Made by a program: the position numbers and the translations under genes
Assembly: GCA_964019135.1 (NCBI GenBank)
Contig: OZ025261.1
Location: 27,388,029 to 27,452,028, forward strand
Source: Arenicola marina
Lineage: Eukaryota; Annelida; Polychaeta; Arenicolidae
Length of the DNA: 64,000 nucleotides
Reading direction: 5' to 3'
In this document: one piece after another, positions 6,419 through 52,300 of the stretch
Layout: each line of letters starts with the position of its first letter
Position numbering within the stretch: position 1 is the stretch's first letter
Notes under the pieces: generated by a model
What the model was told of the DNA's origin: nothing
Seen by the model: only the letters and a program-made list of their open reading frames with translations
Database searches by the model: none

Positions 6419-7084
6419 GTTGATGTCGCACCTGCCGCCGCACCGCCGCCACAAGAAAAAGCCGCTCCGAGACGAAAAGTAGTTCCGGGTCTATACACGT
6501 AAATATGCCAGGCATATTGCCCACATTTTGTTTGTGGGCACAAACTATTCATCTTCATTTTAAATGCCATTGTAGGGACTACAAATAGTTATACGACATT
6601 GCTTTATAGTATTTAATGGGAGAAAATATATCCTTTCGCACGCATGACGTCAAATGTAAACATACACAGGGACTTGGCCTCAACGAACTGAGTGAACGTC
6701 AGTCATTACGTACCCATGCATATCTATCATGAAACCGCTAATATGCGATTTGATGGTGTAGCGAACAAATAATTCTGATATTTAATTACAACAAAATTTG
6801 ACCCATATAGGCGTTTTTCATCAGCTAAAACCGAAGCGGCAATTGTTTGTGTCGTTCTGCACCAATATGACCTGGTGCAGGCTTGGTGGGCAGTTATTTT
6901 GAAAAACGCATAATAAAGTAATTATTTCAATTGCAGCCCGCCTATATAAGGCCATTAATTTAAGCACCTTTGCAAGAAGAATTTAAATACACAAAATAAA
7001 AAATAGATTTAGGTAGATATATGGAACACGCATCCGCGTTTTGCATAGTTGTGATTTTTTTTTAATATAATTATTAAATTAATG
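6419..7084. other. Upstream region of the minus-strand gene
   Basis: GC-rich 5' leader immediately upstream of the 6418 start (GCCGCCGCACC on the plus strand), then AT-rich DNA. No ORF or repeat is supported. The promoter of the minus gene presumably lies here, but no TATA box is evident. Confidence 0.4.
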
Positions 7085-10323: not shown

Positions 10324-10378
10324 ATGTCTCGATTAGCTGATTATTTTATTATTTTAGGATATGATCATGAGAAGGATC
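10324..10378 (+). CDS. SBF1: SBF exon 1 (uDENN start)
   Basis: 55 nt, [18 protein letters not shown] plus one base. The start matches the conserved MARLADYF of the family. Donor GTAAGT at 10379. Confidence 0.92.
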
Positions 10379-16300: not shown

Positions 16301-19300
16301 ACACGTTTATGTTATTTACCGACAGAATTGCTTGGGGCTGATTTACACAGTCAACATTGAGAACTCTAATGCCGAGATGGAGACATTGATAGGCAACATC
16401 CTGGGCTGTATACAGGTGCCTCCGCCTGGTGAGTAAACTCAATGGCTTTCTGCATGATGCTCATGTCTTGCCTTGCCACAGTCGCTGACTGGATATATAT
16501 ATATTATAAGTATATGACATCGCCTGCTATTGCTCATGCTTCATTGTACTTGCAACGTTAGTAGCCATGTCATTTATATCATTGGATTGCATTGCACATA
16601 TATTCTTATCTTTGGGTAAGGCTAAGCGAATAAGCGTGCAAGATCATTCTAACTAATAGTTCTCTTTAGTTGTATGTTCAGAAGTCTTTCTTACTTGCAC
16701 CCGTTCACGCGAAAAAAAAGCTCATTTGCCGGAAAATACATGACAATATCTATATTATATAGCATGTATTCCAATAAGGTAACATCTATAGCTGTGTCGA
16801 TATATCTTATAACTGTTGCATCAATCTATGTGCACATTATACGGTATTATTATGATGTGTGTGATAAGTATGGAGTAGCCCTCGCGATACTCTGCCCTCG
16901 TCAAGCCTATTTTGTAATGCCTGGAGCAGGTTGAAAGATCTTACCGTATGTTACTGTGTGAAAGTTGCGTCTTTTTCTTCCGAGAAAATTGCTAGTAGTC
17001 ATTTTTGTCTGCGGTGCGACTTATATAGCGGAGTTTACGGTACTAGTCTGACGCCTATGGGCAGGCAAGGACCACGATAATGGGCCGAAGTACACCGGCA
17101 ATACTGTACCGCGACCTCGTATTATTTACGTGCTATGGCTGACGAATATAGTGCTGAGGATTAACTCTTTTGTGTCTGGTGCAGGCGGCCCACAGGTGCG
17201 GTTCTCTATAGGCGCTGGAGACAGACAGGCGCTGCAGCCCCCTCTCTGTAGCTCGCTCCCAATCACCACCACAGCTGTCGCCATGCTCTTCAAACATCTA
17301 GGTTAGAATCGCTCCTCCGCCATTGAAACCACGCCCCGTTTTGTAACTCATCGGTGCACATACCGGGCTCCAAAGGTCCCAATGTACACTGAGAGTATAA
17401 GTTGATCGGATTTTATTTTAGTTTAGATTGGTAAATTAGTATCAGATTAAAAATCGCGGTATCGTTATCAGTATTGTATTGTATGATAATAGACGTCAGG
17501 GGACGCATTTTGGTCTTATGGCTAATCCCCGTGCTCCTGGTTTGTTAAAATAAAATAAAAAGTAGCGTAAACATGACACCCTTTTATTTTTGTTATAGTT
17601 AATGAATGTGGATGATATTAAACCAATGTATTTTATATGGTATACATTGTATTTACCAAGAATTATCGGCATAGTGGATATGTATATACGTATAGGTCAC
17701 AGATATCGTGTACCAGTAATGAAATAATTATAAAATTGGAAATAATGTTACATTATATGATGCTAAAGTCGTATTTTGTACTGAACCATGACCAATTGTT
17801 TCATTGAAGTCATTTGTCACCCAATATGTGATACAACATGGATTCCTCGAGCGTAGCATGATATTACGACTTTTATCATATTTGTTGCAGGTATATCAAA
17901 CTCTATCAGCGTATTCTGTGCGGCCCTGACCGACCACAAGGTGTTGTTCATATCTCAGAGCTTCACTCGCCTGACGGAGGCCAGCCACGCCCTCACCGCC
18001 CTCATGTACCCTCTCAAATACAGGTAAACAGCCAGCGACGCCCTCACCGCCCTCGTATACCCTCTCAATACTGGTAAACAGCCAGCCACGCCCTCACCGC
18101 CCTCATGTACCCTCTCAAATACAGGTAAACAGCCAGCCACGCCCTCACCGCCCTCATGTACCCTCTCAAATACAGGTAAACAGCCAGCCACGCCCTCACC
18201 GCCCTCATGTACCCTCTCAAATACAGGTAAACAGCCAGCCACGCTCTCACCGCCCTCATGTACCCTCTCAAATACAGGTAAACGGCCAGCCACGCCCTCA
18301 CCGCCCTCATGTACCCTCTCAAATACAGGTAAACAGCCAGCCACGCCCTCACCGCCCTCGTATACCCTCTCAATATTGGTAAACAGCCAGCCACGCCCTC
18401 ACCGCCCTCATGTACCCTCTCAATACTGGTAAACAGCCAGCCACGCCCTCACCGCCCTCATGTACCCTCTCAAATACTGGTAAACAGCCCGCCACGCCCT
18501 CACCGCCCTCATGTACCCTCTCAAATACTGGTAAACAGCCCCCCACGCCCTCACCGCCCTCATGTACCCTCTCAAATACAGGTAAACGACCAGCCACGCC
18601 CTCACCGCTCTCATGTACCCAGTCAAATACAGGTAAACGGCCAGCCACGCCCTCACCGCCCTCAGGTACCCTCTCAAATACAGGTAAACGGCCAGCCACG
18701 CCCTCACCGCCCTCATGTGCCCTCCATATACTGGTAACCCCCTGTAAATTTCTGTATATACGTCTGATGATAAATACGATACTTCAATGTCAACCGGCTT
18801 TCAAGTTGGGTTCCTTCGACAGTGATTCCTGAAATGCAACATATTTGTATGGTTGCGTATTGCAGTTGTTTAAGGTATTGAATCCCCACTCGTCGCTTGA
18901 CATGTTCGTGCTGTGCCATTGACTTGCACGTTGTTTACTTGCAGTTACGTCTATGTGCCAATCCTGCCTTCTCGACTGATAGAAGTACTGTGTACGCCGA
19001 CCCCATTCATAGCCGGGGTGCACTCCTCCCTGCGATACGACGTCACGGATCTGGTACGAGCACCTCTATATACCACTCTCCTTATCACCGGGGCGTCACA
19101 CCCGTGGCCCAGTGGGTAGTGCGTCCGGCGGTTGTCGAGTGTGCTTTGCTGGGCCAGCCGAAGCGGCCGGTGCAGTTTAAGTCCCAGTGGCTGTATCTGT
19201 GCAGATACAGATACCATGTCTTTCTTACCTAACTGTAGGGGGCTTACTCCCGGAGACATGCCTGACAGATTATCTTAATGATAACTTTGAAATACGTTAA

Positions 19301-22300
19301 CGTGGTAGAAGAAGGTAGAATATATGAGCAGTTTTAAGAGCAATTGCCGTGTACACACAGTAGGTGAATATTTGTGTTTGAGCAGCTTTAAGAGGTGTAA
19401 AAACAATAGGTGAATATTGCCGTTTGAGCAGCTTTAAGAGCTGTTGACGTGTACCAGCTATTTGGTTGTTGCTGTGTGAGCAGCTTTAAGAGCCGTTGCC
19501 GTATCTCCCTCGGCAGCTGGATGTAATCGTGGCGGACTTGGACGGAGGCAGCATCAAGATTCCCGAGAACGTCCACCTATCCTACATGCCGTCATTGCTA
19601 CATAACCGGATGCAGGATTCACTCAACCTGGTCAGTGAAACCGCCGCCATGACAGTATTAACCCTTCCATTGCTAGTAAGCCACCGTGGTCGCCTAGAGG
19701 TGCGCTCGCCTACATGCAGACCGACTGGTCGCGGGTTCCAACCCCACCCGTCCGGCGCGATAGCTCAGTGGGCTAGAGCGCTCGCATTGAATACTCTGGT
19801 CACGTGAGAGCCTAACGGCACGTGGATCGGTGGGTCGCGCCCCGCCGATATTCCTCGGTCCGGTTTTACCAATGCGTGCACAAAGTTGGACTTAAACGCC
19901 ATTTTTGGTAATCCCTGCAACGTATTATAATGTAATAGGGTGTAAGCATCTACCGTGACTACTGCAATATCTTACATCACGGTAACTTTGAAGTATAGTT
20001 CAAAGCATATTATGCAGCAGTTTAATAATTGTTACATATTTTTCACTACATTATTAATAATACGGTTTTTATCTTCAGATCCTTCACCCCGAGTTGTGTT
20101 CTGCGGATTTCGCTTTCCCGCCGCAGTCAGCGAGGTCGTCACATTTAGAAAATGTGGTAAGTGGCCAGGGGTGACCATTCATAGAGCCTATTTAAAATCT
20201 TATAGTGACCAGGGGCCGTATTCATAAGCCCTATTTAAAACCTTACAGTTAACAGTGGCCGTATTCATAAGCCCTACTTAAACCCTTATAGTGACCAGGG
20301 ACCGTATTCATAAGCCCTATTTAAAACCTTACAGTTAACAGAGGCCGTATTCATAAGCCCTACTTAAACCATTATAGTGACCAGGGGCCGTATTCATAAA
20401 CCCTACTTAAACCATTATAGTGACCAGGTGCCGTATTCATAAACCCTACTTAAACCATTATAGTGACCAGGTGCCGTATTTATAAACCCTACTTAAACCC
20501 TTATTGTAACCAGGGGTGACCATTCATCAACCCTATTTAATACCTTATTAACGCTATTTAGAAAATTAAAAAAACGGCTCGCCATGCTGCTTGACTGTAC
20601 CTGACCCAATGGAGACCAGTTACTTGCCGTTAACGTGCAATACTTTTGTACTTTATACTTAAGACTTTTCTTATGTTGTTTTCTTCTCCTTGTTGCAGGA
20701 CAAAGAGATTCGAGCAGTCTTTCTACGTTTTTTTGCTGAGTTATTTTTCGGGTACAGATCTTGTCTCACCATCGTACGAATACATCCAGAACCTGTCATT
20801 CGCTTCCACAAGGTAAGTGAACAGTCGCGCCAGATTGTCTCAATGATATGGAAGTAAACGTTATCTCGTGGAGTTTCTGTCTAGGAGAACCTAATTTCAA
20901 CCCTGTACCCCCACCCCTTGACAGGTGTTTACATACTGTATATAGGTCAATATTTGTTATTGCTAGTTAGATTCGTACGTAAGAGCACGTGGATCGGCGG
21001 TTCGAGCCCCGCTGTGGCCATGTCTGTGTGATCGCAGAATAAAGAGCCCATGTCTTTCGCAAAGAGTAGGGGGTTACCACCGGGGACATGGCTCCACTCT
21101 CCCTTCCTTCTGCCATTGACGCGATATGACTAAAAGCGGTTAAAGCGTCCTGAATATACAACCAGCCAAGCCTATGGTACATTACATAATACAGTGATGT
21201 TATTCAACATTATAACCCTCGCCCCTTGACTATCACAAGCTTCAATGTTCGCTTCTCTTCATTTCGTTACGGCATACTATATACCGGTCAGTACAGTGCT
21301 GCCCTCTACTGGCCGAACCATTGAAAGTCCACTCTGTCAAGAATGAAGACTTTTGTTCTTGTCATGCATGGGTGATTCCGTCACCGGAGTGTACCACTGT
21401 TCCACGTGGTGTCTGTAGCTTTGTACAATGGAGTGAGCGTTGCGACCACTCCGCAGTGCCTTCAGGAGTGTCGCGTCGGCGACGCATTCACAAGACCTCG
21501 AATATTTAGAAAACATTGGCTGAAAATCTGTCCATTAACAGGCCCGTATCGATGGTTTTTACCATTTATATACCGTGATTTTCGGTGTATAAGTCGCACC
21601 TTTTTTCCTGGCGTCCGCGGGGTGCGACTTATATACGTGTACTTATGTACACCAATGTCAGGTTTTGACATGATATTTATAAGTATAAATATTTGATATT
21701 GACAAGCCAGTAAGATACTTACATACGCGGCCTATGTGATACTTGCAGGCTAACTTCCTGGGCCAGAGGGGGTTGGTCGATGACGACTTCACCAAGCGCA
21801 TGCTGGACTCCATGTCCTTCAACACGTTTGTGGCGGAGAGGGGGCCCCCCTACAGGGTCTGCGACATCTTCGACGAGGTAGGAATGGCAGGCTGTCCAGT
21901 GATCCTACTTTTCCTACTTTTTCCTACTTTTTTTGTCTCCATCCTATTTTTCCTACTTTTTCTTCAAAATACCTACATTTTCCTACTTTTTGGTATTTGC
22001 TTCACCAGGCGCAATTTCAAAATGTCGTGAATTGCTGTAAAAGTGTGCATATCGCTTCTATTATTGCAAAAGTCAGAGGTATTTTGTTTTTGCGTCCTGA
22101 TATATCTTTAAATCAACACTAGTGTCTGTCAAGTTCTAATAATGAAAATACAGGTACAGCTGAGCAGCGTATAAGAAATGTTCTAAAAAAGCAGTTTCTC
22201 ATAAAATGACTTTTTGTCATTTGTTTATCCGGAATAATGTTGCTACATATGCTATTTAAGTCATACTTTTTGCTTCTATTTTCCTACTTTTGTCCTACTT

Positions 22301-25300
22301 TTTCTGTATTTCCATTCCTACTTTTGTCCTACTTTTTCATGAGGGTGTGCTGGACAGCCTGGAATGGCTGCAATCCCTCTGGCGATGAGCTGGTGTCTAA
22401 CCAGAGAGCCTCCCTATCTCAATTACCGGTAGTTAGCTAACTGCACGTGGATCGGTGGTTCGCGCTCCGCTGTGGCCATGTCTGTGTGATCGCAGAATAA
22501 AGATCCCATGTCCTTCCTCGCAAAGAGTAGGGGGTTACCCCCGTGTGACATGGCTCCACTCTCCCTCCCTTCTCCCATTTACGCGATATGACCAAACGTG
22601 GTTAAAACGTCCTGAATATGCAACCAACCAATCTATGAGTCAGCGACCCAAGCTGCTTGCATCAGGGACCTGTTTCTTCAGGGAGATTCTCTGACCTAGT
22701 TTAGCCTTTATGTGCACAAGCCTGGCTTCAAATTCCCAGTAGTTCATGTAGTTTCTTAGCGGACCAGAAATATTCGGACAGCGATGAATAATATGAGGAT
22801 ATGACATCATCAGTGTCAAAGGTGGCGTGATGCAGTCTTACAGGCTCAACGTTTCGGTAACCCCAGTCAAATCAGTGAGACCTGGAAGCCAGTAGTGTAC
22901 CTAACCTAGGTCCAGATACAGTAAAACTGATCGCAATAGTGCATGTAGGTTCTTTGTGCATAGATAAAGCAATATATGTATATATGACGTCCATAATGCA
23001 TTGACATCATTATCTTTCTGTTGTGGTGAGCTACATGCCTTGATACACGTGACTTGATACACGTGACTTGATTCGTCATGATGACGTGTTGCAGGTGTTC
23101 GCCAGTATGCAGGAGACGCTGAAGACTGAAGAATCGAACCCCTCACGGTTGATACACAACATGAAGGACTTGGCTCACCAGCTGTACACCAACGTGCGTA
23201 CCACGTGGACCACTCCTAATGCCATGCCTTGTTGTTTGCGCATTTCATCAGTACATCAACAGCTTGTTTGTACATAATACATCAATTGCAGGTTGACACT
23301 TGAAGTTGACTCGAGTTAACACTTAAAGTTGACTCGAGTTAACACTTGGAAGTTGACTCGAGTTAACACTTGGAAGTTGACTCGAGTTAACACTTGGAAG
23401 TTGACTCGAGTTAATCCTTGAAGTTGACTCGAGTTAACACTTGGAAGTTGACTCGAGTTAACACTTGGAAGTTGACTCGAGTTAACACTTGGAAGTTGAC
23501 TCGAGTTAATCCTTGAAGTTGACTCGAGTTAACACTTGGAAGTTGACTCGAGTTAACACTTGGAAGTTGACTCGAGTTAACACTTGGAAGTTGACTCGAG
23601 TGAACACTTGGAAGTTGACTCGAGTTAACACTTGAAGTTGACTCGAGTTAACACTTGAAGTTGACTCGAGTTAACACCTGGAAGTTGACTCGAGTTAACA
23701 CCTGGAAGTTGACTCGAGTTAACACCTGGAAGTTGACTCGAGTTAACACCTGGAAGTTGACTCGAGTTAACACTTGGAAGTTGACTCGAGTTAACACTTG
23801 AAAGTTGACTCGAGTTAACACTTGAAAGTTGACTCGAGTTAACACTTGGAAGTTGACTCGAGTTAACACTTGGAAGTTGACTCGAATTAACACTTGGAAG
23901 TTGACTCGAGTTAACACTTGGAAGTTGACTCGAGTTAACACTTGGAAGTTGACTCGAGTTAACACTTGGAAGTTGACTCGAGTTAACACTTGGAAGTTGA
24001 CTCGAGTTAACACTTGGAAGTTGACTCGAGTTAACACTTGGAATTTGCTTCGAGTTAACACTTGGAAGTTGACTCGATTTAACCCTTGAAGTTGACTTGA
24101 GTCGATACAGATGTAGAAGCATGGGGAGTCTTTGTTGTTGGGCATGTGGTCTAACATCTTGTTAACCCGCTCCCCCAACCCACACCGACTGAGTTTGCTC
24201 AGTTGATAAGCAGGCTGAATCTATTACCAAATTTGGCAACATTTAAAATTGTAATTTGATAACAGTTTAAATTTTAAGTTGGACAACATTTACAATTTTA
24301 ATTGGACAACATTTAAAATTGTATATTTGAAACCATTTTAAAGTGAACCCTCTTTTGTTGACATGGTTTGTTCCCCCGCCTCTGAATGTGTATTACTCTT
24401 TCTGCAGGAGAACCCCAACCCACAACCGTACGTGCAGAAGATCCCCCGGCCGACAGAGGGCGCCTACACGCGCGTCCACCAGCCCGTCTTTCCCATCCTG
24501 GACGAGAAGAAGGTCCAGGACATCATCGAGGAGGGCATCGCCAAGCACAACAGCGCCGCCAAGTGAGCAAGAGTGGCGTCCACGTGTCTCTATGTTCAAT
24601 ATCTATAGATGTACCCGTCGTTCTCGATATGTTCATAATAACATGTAAGCCCAAGTTAAGAGGAACTACACGTGCAAAACGTCCATTCCCGAGAGGTTCC
24701 TTAGTCCAGTTTATTTCTCATGTGCAGAAAGGCGCCCTAAACCAGCCTCCGTGTATTTACCCTGTCGTTTGTGTCTCCTGGTCCCCCAGACTGGGCTACG
24801 TGCGGCCCCAGCAGCCGCGTATCGTGCCTAACGGCCCCCACGTCGTCTCCAACCATGACCGCTGCTCGCTCATCTCCACCAACGCCCGCCGCCTCGAGGT
24901 GCTTCGCTCCTGCATCACATACATCTTCGAGAACAAGATCTCAGACGCCCGCAAGGTCTGTATTCTACGGCTGCAATGTCACCATTGAGTGAGGTCATGA
25001 CGCCCTCAAGGTCATGTTTTACATTATTGAGACGATGAAGGTCATGTTTTACATTGTTGACGCCATTCAAGGTCATGGTTTACATTGATGACACCATCAA
25101 GGTCGTGTTTTACATTATTGACGCCGTCAAGGTCGCGTGATACATTATTGACGCCATCAGGGTCATGTTTTACTTTATTGACACGAGCAAGGTCATGTTT
25201 TACTTTATTGACACGAGCAAGGTCATGTGTTATATTATTGACAGCGTGATTCCTTACCATCTGTCAGCTTTGTTCAGTGCTAAAGAACTCTCGGGGTTTA

Positions 25301-28300
25301 TTTTCAGATATTTTCGGCAGTGTTGAAAGCGCTGAAGAACAAGATCGCTCGCTTGGCGCTCGTTGAAGAGCTCAACTACTACGTGCAGAACAACCGAGCC
25401 ATGCTGGAACACCAGCAGTTTGACCTGGTGGTCAGGCTTCTCAACTGTGCACTACAGGTAGGAACCATGCCATGGTTGTTGGTCAGGGTGCATAAATGTG
25501 CTTTAGGAAGCCTTGAAAGATGGATTAAGTTGATATTATGACACTAATTTACATCAGTGAAATACTTTTGTACCCAAAGGGAAGTTTGGTCAGTTGCTGT
25601 CATGACAACCAATTTGAATAATTATCAGCATTCATTGTATGCATTTAAAAAAAATTAAGTTTAATTAACCAATTTAAATAATTTTCTGTTCATTTTTTTT
25701 ATGCACTTTTTTTTAATAATTTAATATGTTCATGCGTGCATTAAGCAATGGTCCCATGCAATGGTATTTATCAAGTTAAATTAATTGAGGGGGCATCCCT
25801 GGTTTAGTGGTTAGCGCACTAGATTGCAGATCAATGGATCCTATGTTTTTAATTGATAATGAATTTACGTATTTTCAGAACGAGTCCGTGATGGACGAAA
25901 ATGGAATAGCCGCCAGTTTGTTACCTTTGGTAACGGCATTCTGTAGGGTAAGTAGGCACGTACTGCGCGCCAACATAGCCCGTGATTGAAGCTGACCTTA
26001 AATGTTATCTCGATTGCCTATCTATATAATAATGTTAGCTTTTATTGACTTGCGTAATGATATGGCATTTGATTACAAATCGTCAACTCATCATGTGTTT
26101 CCAGTAAAAAGATGCATTTGCTTCACATGGGTAGTTTGAATATGGTTGACCTCCGCCATGCAGAAGCTAAAGTTTGGTGCAATGTTAAAGTTATAAATGT
26201 CATGTGAACTTACAGAGCCGTGTTTAGATTGCTTGCGTGTAACGTGTTTTGTTGACCTCCCCTTACAGACGCTATGCACAGTTTATCTGTGTTCAAGTGT
26301 TTTGTTGACCTCTCCTTACAGAAGCTGTGCACGGGCGTGCTGCACTTCGCCTGTATTTCAAGTGTTTTGTTGACCTCCCCTTACAGAAGCTGGGCACGGG
26401 CGTGCTGCAGTTTGCCTGTATTTCAAGTGTTTTGTTGACCTCCCTTTACAGAAGCTGTGCACTCGCGTGCTGCAGTTTGCCTGTATTTCAAGTGTTTTGT
26501 TGACTTCCCCTTACAGAAGCTGTGCACGGGCGTGCTGCAGTTCGCCTACACGTGTCTCCAGGAACACGCCGTCTGGTCGAGCCAGCAGTTCTGGGAGATG
26601 GCCTACTATACAGATGTGGAGCAGCAAATCAGACAGTTGTACCTACCTCAGTACGAAGAGCACCTGATGCCAGAGCGACACCGGCAATCGCCACCAGATG
26701 TAAGTTATCAGCGTCTGCCGAGCTACAACTAATTAAACTAAGAGAGTGGATGTCTTTATGCGGTAAAGAAATTCAGCTTTCCGTTTATTTATATTCTTTC
26801 ATTGGTCTTTGCCCCGCAGATGTGGGCATAGGCGCACATTATAAGATAACTTGAGTCATTATCGAATGACGAATTCACTTTGTAATTCATATGTTGTAAA
26901 TTGTATTTGGTAAAAATCTGACAAATTTAGATGCGAGATTTTGTTATCACCTTAATTCCTTGCTTCACGTATATGTCAAGATAACTTTAGTCATTATCGA
27001 ATTCAGTTTGTAATTTGCAAAATATGCTGTAAATTGTATCTTGTGAATCTAACAAATTTAGATGCGAGATTTTGTTATCACCTAAATATCTTTGCTTTAC
27101 GTATCTGTCATACGTAAATATAATACAAATATAAAATGATATAAGATGTTATGCTTGTCGCGAATGGCTTAGCCTGACGGCCAGGTTGTGTTGTGTCTAT
27201 GGCAGAGTCCGCCGCTCAGCAACAGCTGGAGTCACAGTTCGATGCAGGGGGGGACGCCCGAACAGAAGCGACGTTCCATGATGCAGACGACACCTTCGTA
27301 CCGCGCGCGCCAAATCAGTCCGCTAGAGATCGCCGCCGAACAGGTAGCCACCTAGCGGCTGGAGACTATCCCAAACATGGGGCAGGCTTCACTTAACCCC
27401 ATTTCGTTATCCCGAAGGTTTCCTGCAACAAATTAGCTTTTATGTGCTTGAAAATGGCCTCAAACGCCTTAAAATTGTTCACGTTTGATTCAGCCTTTTG
27501 GCTGCGTCTGCCACTTTTATCATATTCCATATGACGCCACGTGAAAGGAGTTCAGAGATATATGAAGTTGACAGAAAGTGGCATAATCTGATGCATAGCC
27601 ACCAATAGCACGCTTTTTTTGTCATGAACTGGATTTTATTTTAAACATTATGTACGCGCTGAGTGGGTCATCTTTGTGATATATCCACATATTTTGCCAT
27701 TTTGAACATGCCATAATAATAATAATAATGTTTAATATTAAATGTAAAATCCACGAATGAAGATAAATAATAATAATTAATCATATGGTGGTCTATTTGT
27801 TATGATAGTTTTTGATGCCGTAGGCCGTTGGAGTGTGGTGGATATACTATGTGGGTCTGACGTCACGCTCCTTGCCTCTGCTGACAGATGCGGATCTGGC
27901 CCAGCCTGTCGCCGAGTCACCAGGCAGAGCTGATCAGTGGCGAGGAGTCCACTGTGTACAGTCAGGCCATCCACTACGCCAACCGCATGGTGTACTTGCG
28001 GGTGCCGCTAGACGCCTCCAAACACATGCACGAACCGGGCGCAGTGCTGGAGGGGGAGAGCACGAGCAGCAACGTCACAAACAGGTAGTCTAACCAGTGG
28101 TCACATCACAAACAGGTAGTCTCACCCGTGGTCACATCACAAACAGGTAGTCTAACCAGTGGTCACATCACAAAAAGTTAGTCTCACCCGTGGTCACATC
28201 ACAAACAGGTAGTCTAACCAGTGGTCCCATCACAAACACCTCCAAACACATGCACGAACCGGGCGCAGTGCTGGAGGGGGAGAACACGAGCAGCAACGTC

Positions 28301-40300: not shown

Positions 40301-43300
40301 CCGCACACCCTACCCACCCACCCCCTCCCCGGTTCTCTGGGGTGTGCACGCACATCTCCCCGCCCCTCACAACCCTTGCACGGACTACCCCTTACCCAAC
40401 CACCATCCCCCGCCCTAGCTATCACCCATTTCTTCTACCCCCCCCCCCCTCTCCACCCGGCCCTTAGCTGTCCGCCCCCCCCCCTTCCGCCTGTAGAGTC
40501 CCCATGGATACTCCACCCCACAGAGCCGTACAGCAGCATTGGAAGATCTGGGGACACGTATCGGGAAATATCATCACATCGATTCGTATATTTTAGTAAG
40601 AGTGAACTGAGGTGTTTCTTAACTGCAGAAACTAAACACGATTTGGGTTTTGTATTCTGTTTACCTACCCGCGTGTTATGTTCCATCCATTGCCTCCAGT
40701 GCCGTTGTACTGCCCAATCCTTTGTTGTACCACCTCCCTACTTTACCCACCCACCCTCCCACATTTGTTTTTGTGCCATCACCTTCCCCACGTCGCTGTC
40801 GCTCCCCTCCCAGCGCTTTTGGTGGTTGGGTTGCCTTGGCTAGAGTTGCTTCGCTTGGCTTCGTAGTTTGCATGTCAGTGGCATACTGGGATACATTATT
40901 TTTGCTGTAATTATTTAGCACACGATACTTTCCTTCTTGTAGTGATATTTATTTACTTTATTTTAAAATGAAATGGAAAGTATATTGCTTCTAGCGAAAT
41001 CAAGCGAGTTCAACGCTGCTGATGTCATTTTTATATTTTAGATAAAAGTTACTCTTTGAGATAATTCATGAATACAGACTAAAAAATAGTAAACGTTCAA
41101 AACGTACTTTAATTTGTTTATGTTGTTATTGTTCTATGTGTTGTGATGTATCAGGCAGCTGTGTGCCAATGTCCGCTAAACTTTGCATCATTTTATGTTG
41201 TTGTCATTGTTGTCGGAATGTGGCTGACTGGCATGAAAGTGTGACAACAAATAATATTAAATATTATGTATTCGCGAAAAGGCTGAACGCAATGCATAAC
41301 GCAAGACGGTGGCTGATTTCACGAACACAGTTTAGCCGACTACGGGGCTTAGTCCACTAAAGTTACCATGTAAATTATGGGCGATTTTAGCCGACCAAAC
41401 CCCGTAGCCGGCTAAACTATGTACGTGAAATAGGCCACAGTATTTAGTCTTACGACACTGTGCTTACGACTTATCTCCTCTATAATTGTGATTCCGGCAG
41501 TTATTTTCTTCTATTCGAGGTTTTATCCATCGCTTATATCGTGTAAGTCATTTGGAATCGAGTATTTATAGCCACCCTCCCCACCCTCCGCTGTTGCCTA
41601 TGTGACCTACACGCCTCAACCGACAACCGAAGTTCCCTTCCTTTAGAGTTGAAACGCTTCCATCTCGCGCTGTTAACCGGCATGAGATCAAATAGCAGAC
41701 CTTCGGATGCCCTCTGGTCTTGTTATTTTTTCGGAAGCCAAGTCCCCAAGCTATTAATTTATATCTCTAATAAACGTCCCGGTGGATGAAGCACGTTCTT
41801 TGCCTCCAATGGCGTCCTCCTGTGGCTAGAGGTAGACGCGATGGGCGCCGATTGGACGTTGAATTTTTAGACGTGTATGTCTGCGCTGTGCTCCCGTCAG
41901 ATCCGTTGTTAATGCTGTCTGCGTTCTGTTCTGTGCGTGTCACGTGTTAACAACTGGTTGTGTTAAACTAGATGTGTAGCGTAACCTTTCTGATGGGGAC
42001 GCTGGCAGAATATGCCAAGCGGACCTGTCATAGATAGACTGTTGTAATTGTTGAGAAAGTGATTGAAGAACCAGGTGGTTATAAGCTACAATTGTGCGTC
42101 AGTTCTGGGCAGTAAGTAACTTACTGTTCACTATTGAAGTCTCTTCACGTTGACAGGTTCAATGAGGTCCCTTGACCCAGTTATATATTGACCCATATAT
42201 AGACAGCAGTGGAATAAACCACACGTATGGTCACCTATGCAATACAAACATGTTTTGGGCCCATTACCCCAGCACGACGATTCAGTGAAAAATTCCACCT
42301 TATAATATAAATACAGAACTTTGTCGTTAAAGCCTGTGACTCAGGAATATACTCATTTAAATGCACCCCGCCAGGGCCAATACTGTCAGACGGTAGGGTG
42401 ACACGTCTGTATATCTAACGAAAAGCATTTTAGTGTTTTCAAAAATTTAGTTTTGTTACGTGATATCGGACCCTTACGCATATGTCGTACGGTAATCATC
42501 TGGTTCTAAAGTCACTGGCTTCTCGGCCACTGACAGATCATAGTGTGAAGGTCTTCACTTTTCACTTCTTGTATCTAACTATATAGTTTGTCTTTTAGAT
42601 AATCCTGTAAGTGTTTTCAGTGTATCAGTCTGTGGATGTGTGGATATCAGGTCATGTTTCTGTAATAGTACTTCACATAAATAAGTCGTTCTAATTAAAC
42701 ACATTATTTCTTTATGGAACAAGTGGGGATCATTTAGTTTTTCCTCGCATAGTTTGATGGAATTCGGAACAGTATCGAATGAGTAACCACCACGATTTCA
42801 TCGATGGCCTTTTACTGCATGCAACGAGAGATAACAACTGATTATCGGTAATGGCACTCCTATTGCACATGTGACTACTACTACAGAAGACCTGATGCAA
42901 ACCAGACAGAACTGTACACCGTGCCCTTGTGAGTGAGTGCGTACACTGTGAATCATGTATCTCTTGTGCCCCCCCCCCCCCCCGCCTCCTCCTCCTGGCC
43001 TCCCCCTTCCGGTCACGTGGGTGTACAGCGCTGAACCGGATGAGCAGTCTGAAGCAGCGGTTGTCGACGGCCTCCATGCCGGGCTACCACAGTCCGCTAG
43101 GGGCCAAGCAGAACGGCACCATCGACATGGGAGACCTGGCCGACGGCGCGCAGGGCCTGCAGCGGGCCTCCGTCTACGTGCTCGGCGAGAAAACACAGGT
43201 CAAGGTCAGTCAAGGTCAAGGTCCCACGGTAACACGGTTGAAACGCGAGGACCAGGGTATACGTTTGGTACCAACGCCTCACATCGAAATAGCTGGAAAT

Positions 43301-46300
43301 GAAGTCATAAGAAATTAGGGGTCCAACTTCCATGTAAGAACCCACGAAATGTATTATTATAGTAAACGTTAGGCGTGAGTTATACGTGAGCTATGCTGAA
43401 ACAATGGTTCGTTCCTACATAGAACGACCAAATTAGGTCATACGAAATTAGGTCCTAAGAAATTAGGTCATGGGTAATTCAGCCTTACCTTCATTTATTT
43501 AGCAATGATTTTGTCTGTAATATCCAAAGATATGGGTCCTTATTTTGTGCTTCTTGTATTCGGGAATTTCGAAACAATGGCTGGAATTTTAACCGAAATA
43601 TCGGGGGAAAAAACGCGGTGAAAGTCGGTAATGAATTTGAATATAGTAATAGAGTACGACAGCTTGTCGGTCAATAGCACTTGTGCTACTGTTTATTGTT
43701 GATTTTTGTATACCGACGTTAAATAAATCTTTATCTTATCTTAAGTCGTTGAAGTCTCCCGCCATGACGCCTTGACCCGTCCATTGCAGGGCATCAAGCT
43801 GGACTCGTTCCCCAAGTGTGACTTCATCCCCGTGGATCTGGTGGAGGTCCGCCACATCAAGTCCAGCCTCAAGAAGCTGATGCGCGCATGCGTACCCAGC
43901 TCCGGCACCGCCGACCAGGGCTTCCTGAAGGGCGTCGAGGAGTCCGAGTGGCTCAACCAGATCCAGATGATGATGCAGATTGCAGGAGCCACCGTGGACC
44001 TTCTAGATTCACAGGGGTCCTCGGTCATGGTGTGTCTGGAAGACGGATGGGACTTCACCACCCAGGTCAGTGGGTGTGGGGCGGGGGGGGGGGTGGTAGG
44101 GGAAGGGGGTAGGGGAGGAGGGGGGTCCTCGGTCATGGTGTATCTGGAGGACGGATGGGACTTCACCACCCAGGTCGGGGGGTGAGGGGGGTAAGGGAAA
44201 TGGGTGGGGGAGGAGGGGTGTCCTCGGTCATAGTGTGTCTGGAGGACGGATGGGACTTCACCACCCAGGTCATGGGGGGGGGGGGTGAGGGGGGTAAGGG
44301 AAATGGGTGGGGGAGGAGGGGTGTCCTTGGTCATAGTGTGTCTGGAGGACGGATGGGACTTCACCACCCAGGTCAGTGGGCGTGGGGGAGGGGGGGGAGG
44401 GTAAGGGAAGGGGTTAGGGGAGGAGGGGGGTCCTCGGTCATGGTGTGTCTGGAAGACGGATGGGACTTCACCACCCAGGTCAGTGGGGGTGGGGCGGGGG
44501 GGGGGGGGTAGGGGGTAGGGGAGGAGGGGGGATCTCGGTCATGGTGTATCTGGAGGACGGATGGGACTTCACCACCCAGGTCAGTGGGGGGGTGAGGGGG
44601 GGGTAAGGGAAATGGGTGGGGGAGGAGGGGCGTCCTCGGTCATAGTGTGTCTGGAGGACGGATGGGACTTCACCACCCAGGTCATGGGGGCGGGGGGGTG
44701 AGGGGGATAAGGGAAATGGGTGGGGGAGGAGGGGTGTCCTCGGTCATAGTGTGTCTGGAGGACGGATTGGACTTCACCACCCAGGTCAGTGGGCGTGGGG
44801 GAGGGGGGGTGGTAAGGGAAGGGGGTAGGGGAGGAGGGGGGTCCTCGGTCATGGTGTATCTGGAGGACGGATGGGACTTCACCACCCAGGTCGGGGGGTG
44901 AGGGGGGTAAGGGAAATGGGTGGGGGAGGAGGGGTGTCCTCGGTCATAGTGTGTCTGGAGGACGGATGGGACTTCACCACCCAGGTCATGGGGGGGGGGG
45001 GGGGTGAGGGGGGTAAGGGAAATGGGTGGGGGAGGAGGAGTGTCCTTGGTCATAGTGTGTCTGGAGGACGGATGGGACTTCACCACCCAGGTCAGTGGGC
45101 GTGGGGGAGGGGGGGGGAGGGTAAGGGAAGGGGTTAGGGGAGGAGGGGGGTCCTCGGTCATGGTGTGTCTGGAAGACGGATGGGACTTCACCACCCAGGT
45201 CAGTGGGGGTGGGGCGGGGGGGGGGGGTAGGGGGTAGGGGAGGAGGGGGGATCTCGGTCATGGTGTATCTGGAGGACGGATGGGACTTCACCACCCAGGT
45301 CAGTGGGGGGGTGAGGGGGGGTAAGGGAAATGGGTGGGGGAGGAGGGGCGTCCTCGGTCATAGTGTGTCTGGAGGACGGATGGGACTTCACCACCCAGGT
45401 CATGGGGGCGGGGGGGTGAGGGGGATAAGGGAAATGGGTGGGGGAGGAGGGGTGTCCTCGGTCATAGTGTGTCTGGAGGACGGATTGGACTTCACCACCC
45501 AGGTCAGTGGGCGTGGGGGAGGGGGGGTGGTAAGGGAAGGGGGTAGGGGAGGAGGGGGGTCCTCGGTCATGGTGTGTCTGGAGGACGGATGGGACTTCAC
45601 CACCCAGGTCACTGGGGGTGTGGTTGGGGGGGGGGGGTAAGGGAAGGGGGTAGGGGAGGAGGGGGGCCTTAGGCATTAGAAATCCAGGACTTGACTATGG
45701 GGCGTGTATATAGTACGTCATGTTGTCATTACTGTCAGTAGTATGTACTAGTATTGGAAGGATGCTACTGTCTATGCCGACAACGTCACTACCGCAATAA
45801 TTGGCGATCGGAGAACGGCGGCCGATGATAATATAATATGTTATACTTAATAACTGTTACTAACTGTCTCATTGAATTCCCATCGCCATTGTACAAACCG
45901 CATTACAACCCCTATAACCCTACCTATCGTTGTACCCCCCCCCCCCAGGTGGTGAGCGTGGCCCAGGTGTTGCTGGACCCCTACTACCGGACGTTCGAGG
46001 GCTTCCGGACGCTGGTGGAGAAGGAGTGGCTGTCGTTTGGCCACCGCTTCACCCACCGCAGCAACCAGACGGCTGCCAACCAGGCCAGCGGCTTCGCGCC
46101 AGTCTTCCTCCAGTTCCTCGACGTCGTGCACCAGGTGGGCGGCCCGTCTCCGGCGTGGTGCTTAGGGACGTCATGCTGTGTGACGTCATGTTTGTGACGT
46201 CTTGCCTTGTGATGGTGGTGCCTTGTGATGGTGGTGCCTTGTGATGGCGTGCCTTGTGATGGCGTGCCTTGTGATGACGTGCTTGGTGACGTCAGGCGTT

Positions 46301-49300
46301 GTGACGTCATGCTTGGTGACGTCATGCCTTGTGATGGCGTGCTTGGTGACGTCATGCTGTGGTACGTCATGCCGTGTGATGGCGTGCTTTGTGACGTCAG
46401 GCATTGTGACGTCATTCTTTATGACGTCACGCTTGACGTCATTCTTTGTGATTTGTCACAGAGTTGACGCAGTGCAACATAGAATACCTATCCGATCGAA
46501 ACTTAACGCGCATGTACCAGCGTATAAACCGCTGCTTATATGCTAAGATAAGAAGATGGAAAAGAAAGTAGACAAATGTTAACTGATTAATGATAGATAC
46601 ATGCCGTAAAATAGCCAAAGAATAAAAGACACAACCATACTTTTTGATGCTGCTTATATGTTGTCAGCAATGACGGCTTAATTCCGCTCTTGGATGTGGG
46701 GATAGCCTAGTCACATTTTAGTTTATTACAAAGATTAATCTTTATCCACCCCACCCCCACCCCCACCCCCACCCCCACAATCCACAGATCCAGCTCCAGT
46801 TCCCGCTGTCCTTCGAGTTCAACCAGTATTACCTGCGGTTCCTGGCCTACCACTACGTCTCCTGTCGCTTCCGCACCTTCATGCTGGACAGCGAGTTTGA
46901 GCGGATGGAGGCGGGGTGGCTGCTGGAGGAGGGCAGCCTGCGGCGGGACGCGGGCGGCCTGGCCCCCGCCGCCGGGGGTATGGGGGTCGGGCTGGGCGTG
47001 TCCTCGGACGGCGACAACACGCTGGGGTCCCCCAACAAGCTGCCCACCAACGGGCTGGCGCTGTGGGATTACATCGACTTCTACAACCGACAGTCTCCCA
47101 TCTTCTACAACTTCCACTTCTCGCCTAGCGACCAGGAAATCGTAAGTAGCCCACGTGTTTCTCTGCGCTATAAATACACTTTTAGAGATGGTATAGATTA
47201 TTATAGAGATGTTGGTGCAAAAGATACAAAATGTTTATCTGCTTCTTTCTATCTATGTGAAATATAAGTAAATCATTTGGGTCTATAAGTAAATGAAATT
47301 TCATTTACCTCTAGAAAATGACCTTCTTGCACATTTTCTGGAGGTGTATACACTCTCCGTGTACGCTCACCCACACGCCGTATTTAATTAACTTCCACTG
47401 TATGGCCGCTCCGTGTACACTCACGGCTTCGTACCTGTTGGTGCAGATACATAACGTTCATCTGCTTCTTTCTTAAACCAGTATATTACATGTTAGTAAA
47501 TCACTATTGAATTAATATTTTAAAATTAACTTTTCTTACAATATAAAATTTTAAATTTATTGAGAGAGAGAGAGCAGTGTTGTAACTATAGTGTATATTG
47601 TATATCAAGTCCTTGTGAATAAATTTAAGTTACCTTTCGAAAATGAAGTTTTCGGTACACCGATACGTCAGGTAGCGAACACGTCGTTTTCTGGAGGTGT
47701 ATGCACGCTCCGTGTACGCTCACCCATACGCCGTATTTAATTATTTACCGCTGTATGACCGCTCTGTGTACGTTAAGGGGCCGGCCCGGTAGCTCAGTGG
47801 GTTAGAGCGCTCGCCTTGCGTGCTCTGGCCACCTGAGAGCCTCACGGCACGTGGATCGGTGGTTCGCGCCCCGCTGTGGCCATGTCTGTGTGGTCGCATG
47901 ATAAACATCCCATGTCCTTCTTCGCAATGAGTAGGGGGTTACCCCCCGGGGACATGGCTCCACTCTCCCTTCCTGCCCCCATAGACGCGATATGACCAAA
48001 GGTGGTTAAAGCGTCCTGAATATACAACCAACCAACCGTGTACATATTGACTTAACGACCTCTGTATGGCGGTTGCAGGTGTTGCGGCCCTACTCCAACC
48101 TGTCCAACCTGGTGATCTGGAGCTACCTGCTGGAGGAGGACTTGGCTTGCGGACCCTCCTACGACCTGGAGTCCTTCCAGCGCGAGGCTCAACTACAGGA
48201 GGAGCAGGAGAGCTCCATAGAGGGCACCACTGCCGCCAGCGCGCGCCGCGTCCTCAACAGTTGCTATGACAACGTGCAGCACATGCTACCGGACGCGTGT
48301 TCCTACCTCCTATCGGTGAGAGCTTCCACATAGCTACAAACGTGGTGGTGGTTGGGAGGGGTGGGGGAGGTAATTCACTTGTGTATCTATGTACGGGAGG
48401 CCTCAGGCTATTTAGTACCATAAACTTATGCTACTACTTTGTAGCATACCGTTAACGCATCCCCACTATTGTCTAGAATAAAATATTTAATTTTATAGTA
48501 ATAATTAATAACAAAAAATTACGCGTATTATGATGCATCTTGCCTTGTTCAGTTATCGATTTCCGGTGTTGTACCGATCCTTGTGTATAATAAACTCTTG
48601 TCATTATGCTATAACAGGATGCAAGTCTAACCGTCTGAATGCAATTATTAGATGGCTGATAATCCAGTGGTCCTCTGGGTTTGTGTGGGTCCTTAAACAG
48701 CTAATGTACTTGTAATTAGATGCGAAATAGTTGAAACTCTAATTGAAATGTTCAGTAGTAACTCTAATTGAAATTTTGAGTAGAAACTAATTGAAATTTT
48801 GAGTGGAAAACTAATTGAAATTTTGAGTACAAAAGTAAATGACATTTTGAGTAACAACTAATTGAAATTTTGAGTAGAAATTATAATTAACGATTTTATA
48901 GAAACTGGAATTGACAATTTTGGTAGAAACTAGTTGAAAATGTTAGTAGAAAGTCGAATTGAAATGTTTTAATACGAATTTATTGATAATTGATAGAAAC
49001 TATCAAGCAAAATCAGTTCGCGTGGAATTCGATAAAGTTCTCCTGCAAGAATTACTTCATGGTGATGCTTCCGGGCCGGCCCGATAGCTCAGTCGGTTAG
49101 AGCGCTCGCATTGAGTCCTCTGGCCACCTGAGAGCCTAACGGCACGTGGATCGATGGTTCGAGCCCCGCTGTGGATATGTCTGTGTGGTCGCAGGATAAA
49201 GATCCCATGTCATGCTTCGTAAAGAGTAGGGGGTTACCCCCGGGGACATGGCTCCGCTCTACCCTTCCTTCTCCCATTGACGCGATATGACCAAAAGTGG

Positions 49301-52300
49301 TTAAAGCGTCCTGAATATACAGCCATCATGGTGATGCTTCTTAACGCCGCGGCTTGCCGTTACAGTAACTATACACAATATCTATCTACAGGAAATCCAG
49401 CGCCTGGAGCAAGAGTTGGGCCTCCCCGGCGAGCAGTGGGCCGTGTCCTTAATATACGGCCACCATGGTGATGCTTCTTCACGCCGCGGCTTGCCGTTAC
49501 AGTAACTATACACAATATCTATCTACAGGAAATCCAGCGCCTGGAGCAAGAGTTGGGCCTCCCCGGCGAGCAGTGGGCCGTGTCCTTAATATACGGCCAT
49601 CATGGTGATGCTTCTTAACGCCGCGGCTTGCCGTTGCAGTAACTATACACAATATCTATCTACAGGAAATCCAGCGCCTGGAGCAAGAGTTGGGCCTCCC
49701 CGGCGAGCAGTGGGCCGTGTCCTTAATATACGGCCATCATGGTGATGCTTCTTAACGCCGCGGCTTGCCGTTGCAGTAACTATACACAATATCTATCTAC
49801 AGGAATTCCAGCGCCTGGAGCAAGAGTTGGGCCTCCCCGGCGAGCAGTGGGCCGTGTCCTTAATATACGGCCATCATGGTGATGCTTCTTCACGCCGCGG
49901 CTTGCCGTTACAGTAACTATACACAATATCTATCTACAGGAAATCCAGCGCCTGGAGCAAGAGTTGGGCCTCCCCGGCGAGCAGTGGGCCGTGTCCTTAA
50001 TATACGGCCATCATGGTGATGCTTCTTAACGCCGCGGCTTGCCGTTGCAGTAACTATACACAATATCTATCTACAGGAATTCCAGCGCCTGGAGCAAGAG
50101 TTGGGCCTCCCCGGCGAGCAGTGGGCCGTGTCCTTAATATACGGCCATCATGGTGATGCTTCTTCACGCCGCGGCTTGCCGTTACAGTAATTATACACAA
50201 TATCTATCTACAGGAAATCCAGCACCTCGAGCAGGAGTTGGGCCTCCCCGGCGAGCAGTGGGCCGTGTCCTGGGAGAAGCTGGACGCCCCGTCCAGGGAG
50301 CATCTCCAGCGCCAGATGTCGCTCAACACGCAGCTGGTGCGCTCGCACGGCCGCCACCTCCACAAGCGGTCGACCATCGAGCTGCTGGTGAAGGGCAAGA
50401 TGCTGGGGGAGGCCGCCAAGATGTTCAGCCAGCAACACCACTTCGAGAAGTTCAACTACACGACGCCGGCCTCGTGCGACTACTGCTCGCACGTCCTGTG
50501 GGGGCTGCTCAAGACAGGTCAGTGTGGGGTGGCGCCATCTACTGGCTCCTAGCTCAGTTGTCAGGCCGGCTGAGCTGAGGCAGGTCAGTGTGGGGGCTGC
50601 TCAAGGCAGGTCAGTGTGGGGTGGCGCCATCTACTGGCTCCTAGCTCAGTTGTCAGGCCGGCTGAGCTGAGGCAGGTCAGTGTGGGGGCTGCTCAAGGCA
50701 GGTCAGTGTGGGGTGGCGCCATCTACTGGCTCCTAGCTCAGTTGTCAGGCCGGCTGAGCTGAGGCAGGTCAGTGTGGGGGCTGCTCAAGGCAGGTCAGTG
50801 TGGGGTGGCGCCATCTACTGGCTCCTAGCTCAGTTATCAGGCCGGCTGAGCTGAGGCAGGTCAGTGTGGGGTCTGCTCAAAACAGGTCAGTGCGTCGTGG
50901 CGCCATCTACTGGCTCCTAGCTCAGTTACCAGGCCGGCTGAGCTGCATATCAACAGGTCGTGGGTGCGAACCCTAGGGTTCCCCTAACCCAACCCTCGAA
51001 CCCTAGCATTCCGTCGCTTTCACAACTTATCACTATATATGGTCGATCCTTACGGCTTTTTGTTATTACAATTAATGTTATATTTGAACTTTTTTTCCAT
51101 TGCATGTATTTGTTTATTTGTTATTGGGAATCTAAAAAGCCAAATCACCTGCTTAACTATCTCGATACCCGAAATATCAAAAATTTAAACCTATTATTAT
51201 TTATTTAATTTCATCACGCTACGATTCGCCAACTTTTTTTTACACATTTAAGCGTATAAAATATTTCTCGTTCATTATATTTAAATATGTTAATTTTTTG
51301 TTATTAATTTATTGCCTGAGAAAATGAATCATTTCTTGCCATTTGGCCACGCAGTGGTAATGCCTTGCTTTAGCACCATTCAGCTTGCTCTGGTCACAAG
51401 GACCCGTGAGTTGAAAACTGTCGGGGCTGAACATTGTGCCCAGCTCTGTGCTGATGGCCTGTGCTCACCCCTGTGCTCCAGGCTCTCTGTTTCACCCCAC
51501 GTGCTCTGTGCTCACGGCTGTCTTTCTCTTCCGCTTTTCGCTGTCCGTCCGCCCGCTCGCCCGCCCGTCCGTCCGTGCCCCAGGCATGCGCTGTACGGAC
51601 TGCGGCTACAACTGCCACGAGAAGTGCATGCCGCACGCGCCCAAGAACTGCACGCGGCTACAGCCCATGGCCGAGTCCCGGTCCAGCATGACTAGCGTCT
51701 CCAAGGCCAGCATCGCCGAGACCGTGTCCCAGGCCGGAGGTGGGTGGGGGACGAGTAAGGGAGAGGGGTGAGAGGGGGGGGGGGGGTGTCACGGTCCAGG
51801 ATGACCAGCGTCTCCAAGGCCAGCATCGAGTTTTTGTATATTTGTGTCTTAGATGGAAGATAATGTCATATTTATATACTGTGTATATCAGTCAAATAAG
51901 TATTAGTATATAGAGACATATCAATTTTTCCATAAATATCAGCGGCAAGGAAGTTCCTGTTTGACCTTTGCCCTTTGCCCCGGCAGAGACGCGCACCCAC
52001 GAGGGTTACCTGTACAAGCGCGGCGCCCTCCTCAAGGGGTGGAAGCAGCGCTGGTTCGTCCTCGACTCCATGAAACACCAGCTCCGTTACTATGACAACC
52101 ACGAGGACACGAGCTGCAAGGGATTCATCGACCTGGCTGACGTGGAGTCCGTGCAGGCCATCCGCAACGTGCAGGGCGCCCCCAAGCGGGCGGACGACAA
52201 CTCCTTCTTCGAGGTCAGTTCAAGGTCTCTCCCTGAGGTTTGCCAAGGTCGCTCCCTGGGGATTGCCAAGGTTGCGCCATGAGGATTGCCAAGGTCGCTC

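What the first reader, a model, noticed from the sequence alone, without database searches (positions are those of the whole stretch)
17891..50945. One gene with at least nine exon borders amplified into tandem arrays of splice sites
Arrays next to exons 6, 14, 17, 19, 20, 23, 24, 31, 35 (both sides) contain exon sequence plus the adjoining donor or acceptor. The genuine border is always the outermost exon-proximal one that keeps the frame: first donor, last acceptor. This repeats across independent introns with different unit lengths (30, 31, 35, 51, 65, 92, 105, 137 bp), so the process is recurrent and not a single accident. I recall such 'mirage' minisatellites from an amphioxus Adh gene; a gene with this many would be exceptional and suggests a border-specific mechanism, perhaps linked to splicing, R-loops or replication.
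Basis: partly seen in the sequence, partly recalled or inferred. Interest (0 to 1): 0.88.

Follow-up and report, generated by a model that had tools for sequence, protein, structure and literature searches.

The report
Gene with nine tandemly copied splice sites
In one animal gene, nine of the points where coding and non-coding DNA meet have been copied into rows of look-alike splice sites, an extreme case of a rare pattern known from lancelets that shows how new gene pieces could arise and poses the question how the cell picks the right site.

Summary
The core observation is right. The + strand carries a SET-binding-factor (SBF/MTMR5-13-like) gene. My 38-exon model (10324-53054, 2051 aa, 37 GT-AG introns) is open throughout and is recognised by Pfam and PDB searches. 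Exon copies were found only in adjacent introns. The arrays hold 78 extra splice sites: 76 keep GT or AG, 45 have exactly the genuine motif, and 71 would break the reading frame. Nine of 30 arrays span a border; nulls expect 1.8 to 3.8 (P 7.5e-5 to 0.012), the harshest 5.4 (P 0.06). The window was handed over for this pattern, so enrichment is suggestive. Junctions look like break repair: 5-bp microhomology at one array, telomeric filler at another. Decoy motifs show no special conservation. These meet the testable parts of the definition of 'mirage' minisatellites, reported in amphioxus Adh3, globin, TnC and PGBD5 genes. New here are the density and the junction anatomy. The species is untested.

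The parts
10324..53054 (+). SBF/MTMR5-13-like gene, 38 coding exons, 2051 aa, hand model
   Evidence: Open frame through 37 GT-AG introns; Pfam SBF2, Myotub-related, DENN, uDENN, GRAM, C1, PH; SET binding factor 1 PH domain 1v5u E 4.8e-35
17980..18737 (+). Exon-6 donor array: unit 51 bp, 44 exonic bp, 14 decoy donors (all GT, 8 identical to the genuine 9-mer)
26245..26547 (+). Exon-17 acceptor array: unit 65 bp, 31 exonic bp, 4 decoy acceptors; outermost copy degenerate (TRF itself calls 26292-26547; I extended it to the degenerate copy)
28075..28682 (+). Exon-19 donor array: unit 31 bp, 10 exonic bp, 17 decoys (15 keep GT), with a second 224-bp duplication starting at exon position 28012
29032..29845 (+). 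Exon-20 acceptor array: units 105/111 bp, 35 exonic bp, 7 decoys; linkers between copies carry 2-3 TTAGGG
33994..34111 (+). Exon-23 donor array: unit 35 bp, 29 exonic bp, 2 decoys, all copies identical
34331..34620 (+). Exon-24 acceptor array: unit 30 bp, 14 exonic bp, 9 decoys, 6 of which would leave the frame open (10 aa per unit)
44014..45666 (+). Exon-31 donor array: units 95-108 bp, 52 exonic bp, 15 decoys (8 identical 9-mers), block of seven units repeated after 716-720 bp
49308..50271 (+). Exon-35 acceptor array: unit 137 bp, 58 exonic bp, 6 decoys, all with the genuine 15-mer; starts in the tail of a SINE-like repeat, GTCCT at both ends
50497..50945 (+). Exon-35 donor array: unit 92 bp, 21 exonic bp, 4 decoys, all with the genuine 9-mer
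51788..51828 (+). Single copy of exon-36 sequence 51675-51715 in intron 36 (92.7% over 41 bp), period 113 bp; the donor itself is not in the copy

Best explanation
These are mirage-type minisatellites. Short segments straddling an exon border were duplicated in tandem during error-prone repair of local breaks, several times independently in this gene. The duplicates then grew by slippage or unequal exchange into arrays that lie in the adjacent intron. They persist because the copy next to the exon keeps the coding sequence and splice site intact. Splicing is expected to use the exon-proximal site (first donor, last acceptor), and the other copies drift without function. Shown: the arrays, their place, the intact frame, the decoys, the junction sequences and the lack of motif-specific conservation. 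Inferred: break repair as the origin, the growth mechanism, exon-proximal splicing, and neutrality. (The first two rivals below differ from this only on whether borders are hit preferentially, so the odds are not exclusive.)
For: Every exon was compared with every intron; the 9 exon-intron pairs that matched (E up to 0.01) were all adjacent pairs, and the best hit of each was on the + strand, as expected of local tandem duplication.

Simple-junction arrays: A35 has GTCCT at both ends, one in the tail of a SINE-like element and one in exon 35; D31 has a G-run at both ends.

Arrays of the form copy-linker-copy with a copy at both ends: the linker is not found beyond the distal copy at A20, D19, A24, D35 and D6 (10/26, 7/19, 3/10, 3/11, 2/7 matches). 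The A20 linkers hold TTAGGG runs; runs of two or more TTAGGG or CCCTAA occur nowhere else in the window.

Staggered breaks are reported to give tandem duplications by cNHEJ (PMC5730883, abstract and passages). TTAGGG repeats are reported inserted at break repair in primates and rodents (PMC7215372, start of abstract in the listing).

Two nested duplications at one donor and a repeated seven-unit block at D31 show continued exchange.

Splice-motif columns of the decoys are not more conserved than the rest (Wilcoxon over nine arrays P 0.25), and 71 of 78 decoys would break the frame.

Against: No transcripts, no second allele and no relative were available, so exon-proximal splicing and repeat instability are untested here. 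Copy-linker-copy could also arise if the distal linker was deleted or replaced; at D35 and A17 the flank beyond the distal copy looks partly similar to the linker by eye. The distal copy is the least like the rest in 6 of 9 arrays, which blurs the ends. The excess at borders is not explained by repair alone. 76 of 78 decoys keep GT or AG, which neutrality permits in young arrays but does not predict strongly.
Confidence: 0.72

Rival explanations
1. A border-directed hot spot: splice borders themselves are prone to breaks or template switching (polymerase pausing, nucleosome edges, co-transcriptional structures), so arrays are born there several times more often than elsewhere.
For: 9 of 30 arrays span a border; expected 2.1 (P 7.5e-5), 3.7 for whole arrays placed in introns (P 0.008), 2.9 with arrays collapsed (P 0.001), 3.8 with a further quarter of the intron removed (P 0.007), 3.7 by point coverage (P 0.012), 1.8 by point coverage of the non-border arrays only (P 1e-4). 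8 of the 12 arrays with TRF score 400 or more are at borders. Border units are longer than the others (Mann-Whitney P 0.0006). 7 of 21 non-spanning arrays end within 25 bp of a border, expected 2.3 (P 0.003) or 3.0 (P 0.015). Donors and acceptors are both hit (5 and 4).
Against: Window handed over for this pattern. P rises to 0.06 if half of the collapsed intron DNA is taken as younger than the arrays. For the 21 non-spanning arrays the counts within 50 and 100 bp (P 0.07, 0.14) and the median distance (P 0.085) are not significant after collapsing. GC skew has no common sign.
Confidence: 0.3
2. Plain tandem duplication with uniform position, filtered by selection: exon-internal duplications are lost, intronic and border ones are kept, and this gene is a chance extreme among many scanned.
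For: Intron-only arrays are also abundant (21 in the gene). The harshest null gives P 0.06. Many windows were presumably scanned (inference).
Against: The other nulls give P 0.012 or less.
Confidence: 0.4
3. The arrays have a splicing function, for example extra donors near a weak donor, or regulated use of decoys.
For: The genuine donors of exons 6 and 19 score 4.3 and 2.9, below the 32 non-array donors (minimum 4.5), although the scoring matrix was built from those 32.
Against: The donors of exons 23, 31 and 35 are strong (10.97). Decoy motif columns are not specially conserved. 71 of 78 decoys break the frame.
Confidence: 0.06
4. Part of the exon-24 array is translated: decoy acceptors 30n bp upstream add 10-residue units in frame.
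For: 6 of 9 decoys leave the frame open.
Against: One added unit lowers the GRAM score from 37.8 to 29.8 bits and cuts the match from profile position 106 to 87.
Confidence: 0.06
5. Assembly artefact.
For: Repeated blocks can be misassembled; the BflGb6 draft assembly was found aberrant by its authors (PMC3087553, supplementary legend in the passages).
Against: Nine arrays with different units, most with copies that differ from one another (the exon-23 copies are identical), each collinear with its exon. Copy numbers may still be wrong.
Confidence: 0.04

Closest known systems
Amphioxus 'mirage' minisatellites (Adh3, globins BflGb6 and BflGb9, TnC, PGBD5): PMC3087553 and PMC3902484, passages read
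   Different: Nine in one gene with up to 17 decoys each; both ends of two introns (19 and 23) and both sides of exon 35; linker and telomeric filler; placement tested against nulls. Species and instability not tested here. The number of mirages in Adh3 and TnC was not seen.
[quoted passage not shown] AGGT model)
   Same: A duplication crossing an intron-exon boundary supplies splice sites
   Different: No new intron is shown here; the copies stay inside existing introns
Repair-mediated duplications in the human genome (PMC2671141, abstract and section 10)
   Same: Closely linked duplication by break repair that sometimes includes exon/intron sequence
   Different: Those are insertions of at least 50 bp, not described there as arrays; partial exon/intron donors are rare (4 in Table 2)
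Human internal tandem repeats at exon-intron boundaries in segmental duplications (PMC2812944, passages)
   Same: Long-unit repeats at boundaries
   Different: There the repeats change transcripts and can form introns; here no transcript data
Dual-specific AGGT splice sites in tandem repeats (PMC10809524, passages)
   Same: All five donor arrays here repeat a CAG|GT junction
   Different: Dual use not shown; as acceptors the five junctions score 0.3 to 4.8 against a genuine mean of 8.7

Membership tests
Mirage minisatellite (as described in PMC3087553) | Minisatellite-like tandem repeat that spans an exon-intron boundary | tested here: met
   9 of 74 borders
Mirage minisatellite (as described in PMC3087553) | Many copies carry AG/GT splice signals | tested here: met
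   76 of 78 decoys keep GT or AG
Mirage minisatellite (as described in PMC3087553) | Regular splicing undisturbed | not testable with these tools
   No RNA data; open frame and gap-free homology at 3 borders only support it
Mirage minisatellite (as described in PMC3087553) | Length instability between haplotypes or somatic cells | not testable with these tools
   One sequence only; no genome held
Mirage minisatellite (as described in PMC3087553) | Found in cephalochordates | not tested
   Species of the window not given and not established
SBF/MTMR5-13 protein family | DENN, SBF2, GRAM, myotubularin-like and PH domains in order | tested here: met
   PH closest to SET binding factor 1 (1v5u). 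That this order defines the family is recalled.
Intron gained by tandem duplication | Donor and acceptor flanks of the same intron resemble each other more than those of other introns | tested here: inconclusive
   Own-intron mean score 10.2 against 9.9 for all pairs; 5 of 37 introns rank first or tied first (4, 5, 21, 26, 31), only intron 31 with a border array
R-loop-driven repeats | Consistent G-rich coding strand | tested here: not met
   Unit GC skew -0.52 to +0.59 over nine arrays

The most novel reading that the evidence does not exclude
Splice borders in this genome are a hot spot for tandem-array birth, and which donor borders can carry arrays is filtered by splicing itself. All five donor arrays repeat CAG|GT, against 5 of 32 other donors (one-sided Fisher P 0.0006; motif chosen after seeing the data, one of four tried; for AG|GT P 0.047). 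At such a junction a decoy used as an acceptor would recreate the same exon|GT junction and could be spliced again (recursive or dual-specific splicing), so mis-splicing into the array would repair itself and the array would be tolerated.
Probability: 0.12. Interest if true: 0.85.

Novelty: new member of a known kind. Interest (0 to 1): 0.58.

Why it matters
The globin and PGBD5 cases whose text I saw have one or two border arrays in a gene. Nine in one gene, with 45 decoys identical to the genuine motif, is a natural test of how the spliceosome chooses among identical sites by position alone. It also supplies raw material for intron gain by duplication. The copy-linker-copy junctions with telomeric filler give a concrete hypothesis (break repair) for how such arrays begin, which PMC3087553 calls unclear. 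If the border excess holds genome-wide, it would point to a mutational hot spot at splice borders.

Tried and rejected
Exon 14 as a tenth border: best match 15 bp, exon 14 ranks third of 37 donors; rejected. A weak match of the exon-32 acceptor to the exon-31 array (E 0.31; first of 37) was not counted. Near-border short-unit arrays as decayed mirages (exons 9, 28, 37): with exon sequence alone their donors rank 6th, 8th and 31st of 37; with the intron gap added 1st, 3rd and 5th; left open and not counted. Special conservation of decoy splice motifs: not found (P 0.25). R-loop skew: no common sign. Introns born from duplication: inconclusive. Source of the linkers elsewhere in the window: no convincing match (best 11 bp exact). 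Rfam (gathering threshold) and tRNA scans: nothing. Huntingtin and G-alpha papers: nothing on mirages in the passages shown. SINE identification in print: nothing useful in the listing. One row (A20 first against last copy, 21 of 78) was misregistered by my own index error and is not used; by eye the two 61-bp copies differ at one base. The A20 remainder of 79 comes from mixing 105- and 111-bp units and is likewise not used. One search listed 19 exon-19 sites; the one without a junction was dropped before counting (18 kept, one of them genuine). The two exon-19 decoys without GT are counted among the 78 and the 71. For the statistics the merged TRF row 28792-29845 was split in two and the exon-31 unit was set to 103 by hand.
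Full report
WHAT IS THERE. The + strand holds a gene of the SET-binding-factor (SBF, MTMR5/MTMR13-like) family. I built a 38-exon model by hand from splice sites and frame; it spans 10324-53054, all 37 introns begin GT and end AG, and the 6156-base coding sequence is open to its stop, giving 2051 residues. Pfam finds uDENN, DENN, dDENN (below its cut-off), SBF2, GRAM, myotubularin-like, C1 and PH domains in order. Among solved structures the PH domain is closest to SET binding factor 1 (1v5u), the phosphatase-like part to MTMR2 and MTMR1, the N-terminal part to DENND1A. The genome was not available, and the species is not established; the likeness to amphioxus rests on the phenomenon alone.

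THE ARRAYS. After merging overlapping TRF rows (period 10 or more, score 50 or more) and splitting one merged row by hand, the gene contains 30 arrays. Nine of them span one of the 74 internal exon borders: donors of exons 6, 19, 23, 31, 35 and acceptors of exons 17, 20, 24, 35. Independently, a BLAST of every exon against every intron (E up to 0.01) found nine matching pairs, all adjacent, with the best hit of each on the + strand: eight of the nine arrays (exon 24's 14-bp exon part does not appear) plus one single copy, exon 36 in intron 36. Border-spanning queries recover all nine arrays. Introns 19 and 23 carry arrays at both ends, and exon 35 on both sides.

IS IT MORE THAN CHANCE. With unit footprints placed uniformly over the gene, and placements that would change the coding sequence rejected, 2.1 border-spanning arrays are expected and 9 seen (P 7.5e-5). 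With whole arrays placed in introns the expectation is 3.7 (P 0.008). With every array collapsed to one unit it is 2.9 (P 0.001), with a further quarter of the intron DNA removed 3.8 (P 0.007), with a further half removed 5.4 (P 0.06). Counting borders as points gives 3.7 expected (P 0.012), or 1.8 if only the non-border arrays set the rate (P 1e-4). The strongest arrays are mostly the border ones (8 of 12 with score 400 or more), and border units are longer (P 0.0006). Of the 21 other arrays 7 end within 25 bp of a border, against 2.3 expected (P 0.003) or 3.0 after collapsing (P 0.015); after collapsing, the counts within 50 and 100 bp (P 0.07, 0.14) and the median distance (P 0.085) are not significant. 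The window was handed over because of this pattern and the number of windows scanned is unknown, so these P values are optimistic.

THE DECOYS. The nine arrays hold 78 extra sites: 52 donors and 26 acceptors. 76 keep GT or AG and 45 have a motif identical to the genuine one (9 bases for donors, 15 for acceptors). Local sequence therefore cannot tell the genuine site from many decoys; position must. If a decoy were used, 41 would shift the frame and 30 would meet a stop in phase (71 of 78), and 7 would leave an open frame: six in the exon-24 array (10 residues per unit) and one in the exon-31 array. For exon 24, adding one unit lowers the GRAM match from 37.8 to 29.8 bits, in favour of the last acceptor. 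Splice-motif columns of decoys are not more conserved than other columns (P 0.25). In six of the nine arrays the copy farthest from the exon is the least like the rest; the exceptions are exon 23 (identical copies), exon 31 and the exon-35 acceptor, where the exon's own copy differs most. At exons 19 and 20 much of that difference is the missing linker.

HOW IT PROBABLY AROSE. The exon-35 acceptor array starts in the tail of a SINE-like repeat, and GTCCT stands both there and at the far end in exon 35: a 137-bp duplication between 5-bp microhomologies. The exon-31 array has a G-run at both ends. Others have the form copy-linker-copy with a copy, not a linker, at each end: the linker is not found beyond the distal copy at exons 20, 19, 24, 35 (donor) and 6, though at the exon-35 donor the flank looks partly similar by eye. 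At exon 20 the linker contains two or three TTAGGG, and runs of two or more occur nowhere else in the window. Tandem duplication from staggered breaks by end joining is experimentally known (PMC5730883, abstract and passages), and TTAGGG insertion during break repair is reported for primates and rodents (PMC7215372, start of abstract seen in the listing). I therefore infer break repair, sometimes with filler, as the origin, and slippage or unequal exchange for the growth. The exon-19 donor shows a second, larger duplication (224 bp, 209 identical), and exon 31 a block of seven units repeated 716-720 bp further on (site list; ungapped identity at the best lag 368 of 600).

WHAT IT IS LIKE. PMC3087553 (passages) describes such repeats as 'mirages' in amphioxus globin genes, cites Adh3, calls their origin unclear and says that splicing does not seem disturbed. 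PMC3902484 (passages) adds PGBD5 and TnC. The arrays here meet the testable parts of that description. I found no paper on this gene or on so many in one gene in the listings, which cover only the held open-access library and show only the top rows; the Adh and TnC originals were not read.

A BOLDER READING. All five donor arrays repeat CAG|GT, against 5 of 32 other donors (P 0.0006 after the fact, one of four motifs tried; for AG|GT 5 of 5 against 16 of 32, P 0.047). A decoy of this kind, used as an acceptor, would rebuild the same junction. Dual-specific AGGT sites in tandem repeats are known in human genes (PMC10809524, passages). Against it, the five junctions score only 0.3 to 4.8 as acceptors, where genuine ones average 8.7.

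Noticed in passing
19759-19845, 20985-21169, 22437-22631, 35595-35786, 36606-36847, 47790-48035, 49083-49325, 52455-52631: Eight matches to a SINE-like repeat of about 250 bp (87-247 bp matched, 89.9-95.5% identity, E up to 1e-5), all on the + strand, the strand of the gene. That its 5' part looks tRNA-derived is my reading; ARAGORN found no tRNA.
   Followed up: partly
29095-29754: All runs of two or more TTAGGG in the window lie in the linkers of the exon-20 array.
   Followed up: yes
31269-33688: A 2.4-kb intronic array of a 29-bp unit (83 copies, score 4035) in intron 22 that does not touch a border.
   Followed up: no
1-2719 and 7084-9507: Large arrays of 25-bp and about 50-bp units upstream of the gene model; the first begins at the window's first base.
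   Followed up: no
51675-51828: A single 113-bp-period partial duplication of exon 36 into intron 36, perhaps a border array that never grew or has decayed.
   Followed up: partly
20156-20516, 37736-37928, 52213-52456: Short-unit arrays starting 20, 17 and 7 bp after the donors of exons 9, 28 and 37, with weak similarity to the border; possible old border arrays.
   Followed up: partly
18023 and 28084: The donors of exons 6 and 19 score below the 32 non-array donors of the gene, on a matrix built from those 32.
   Followed up: partly
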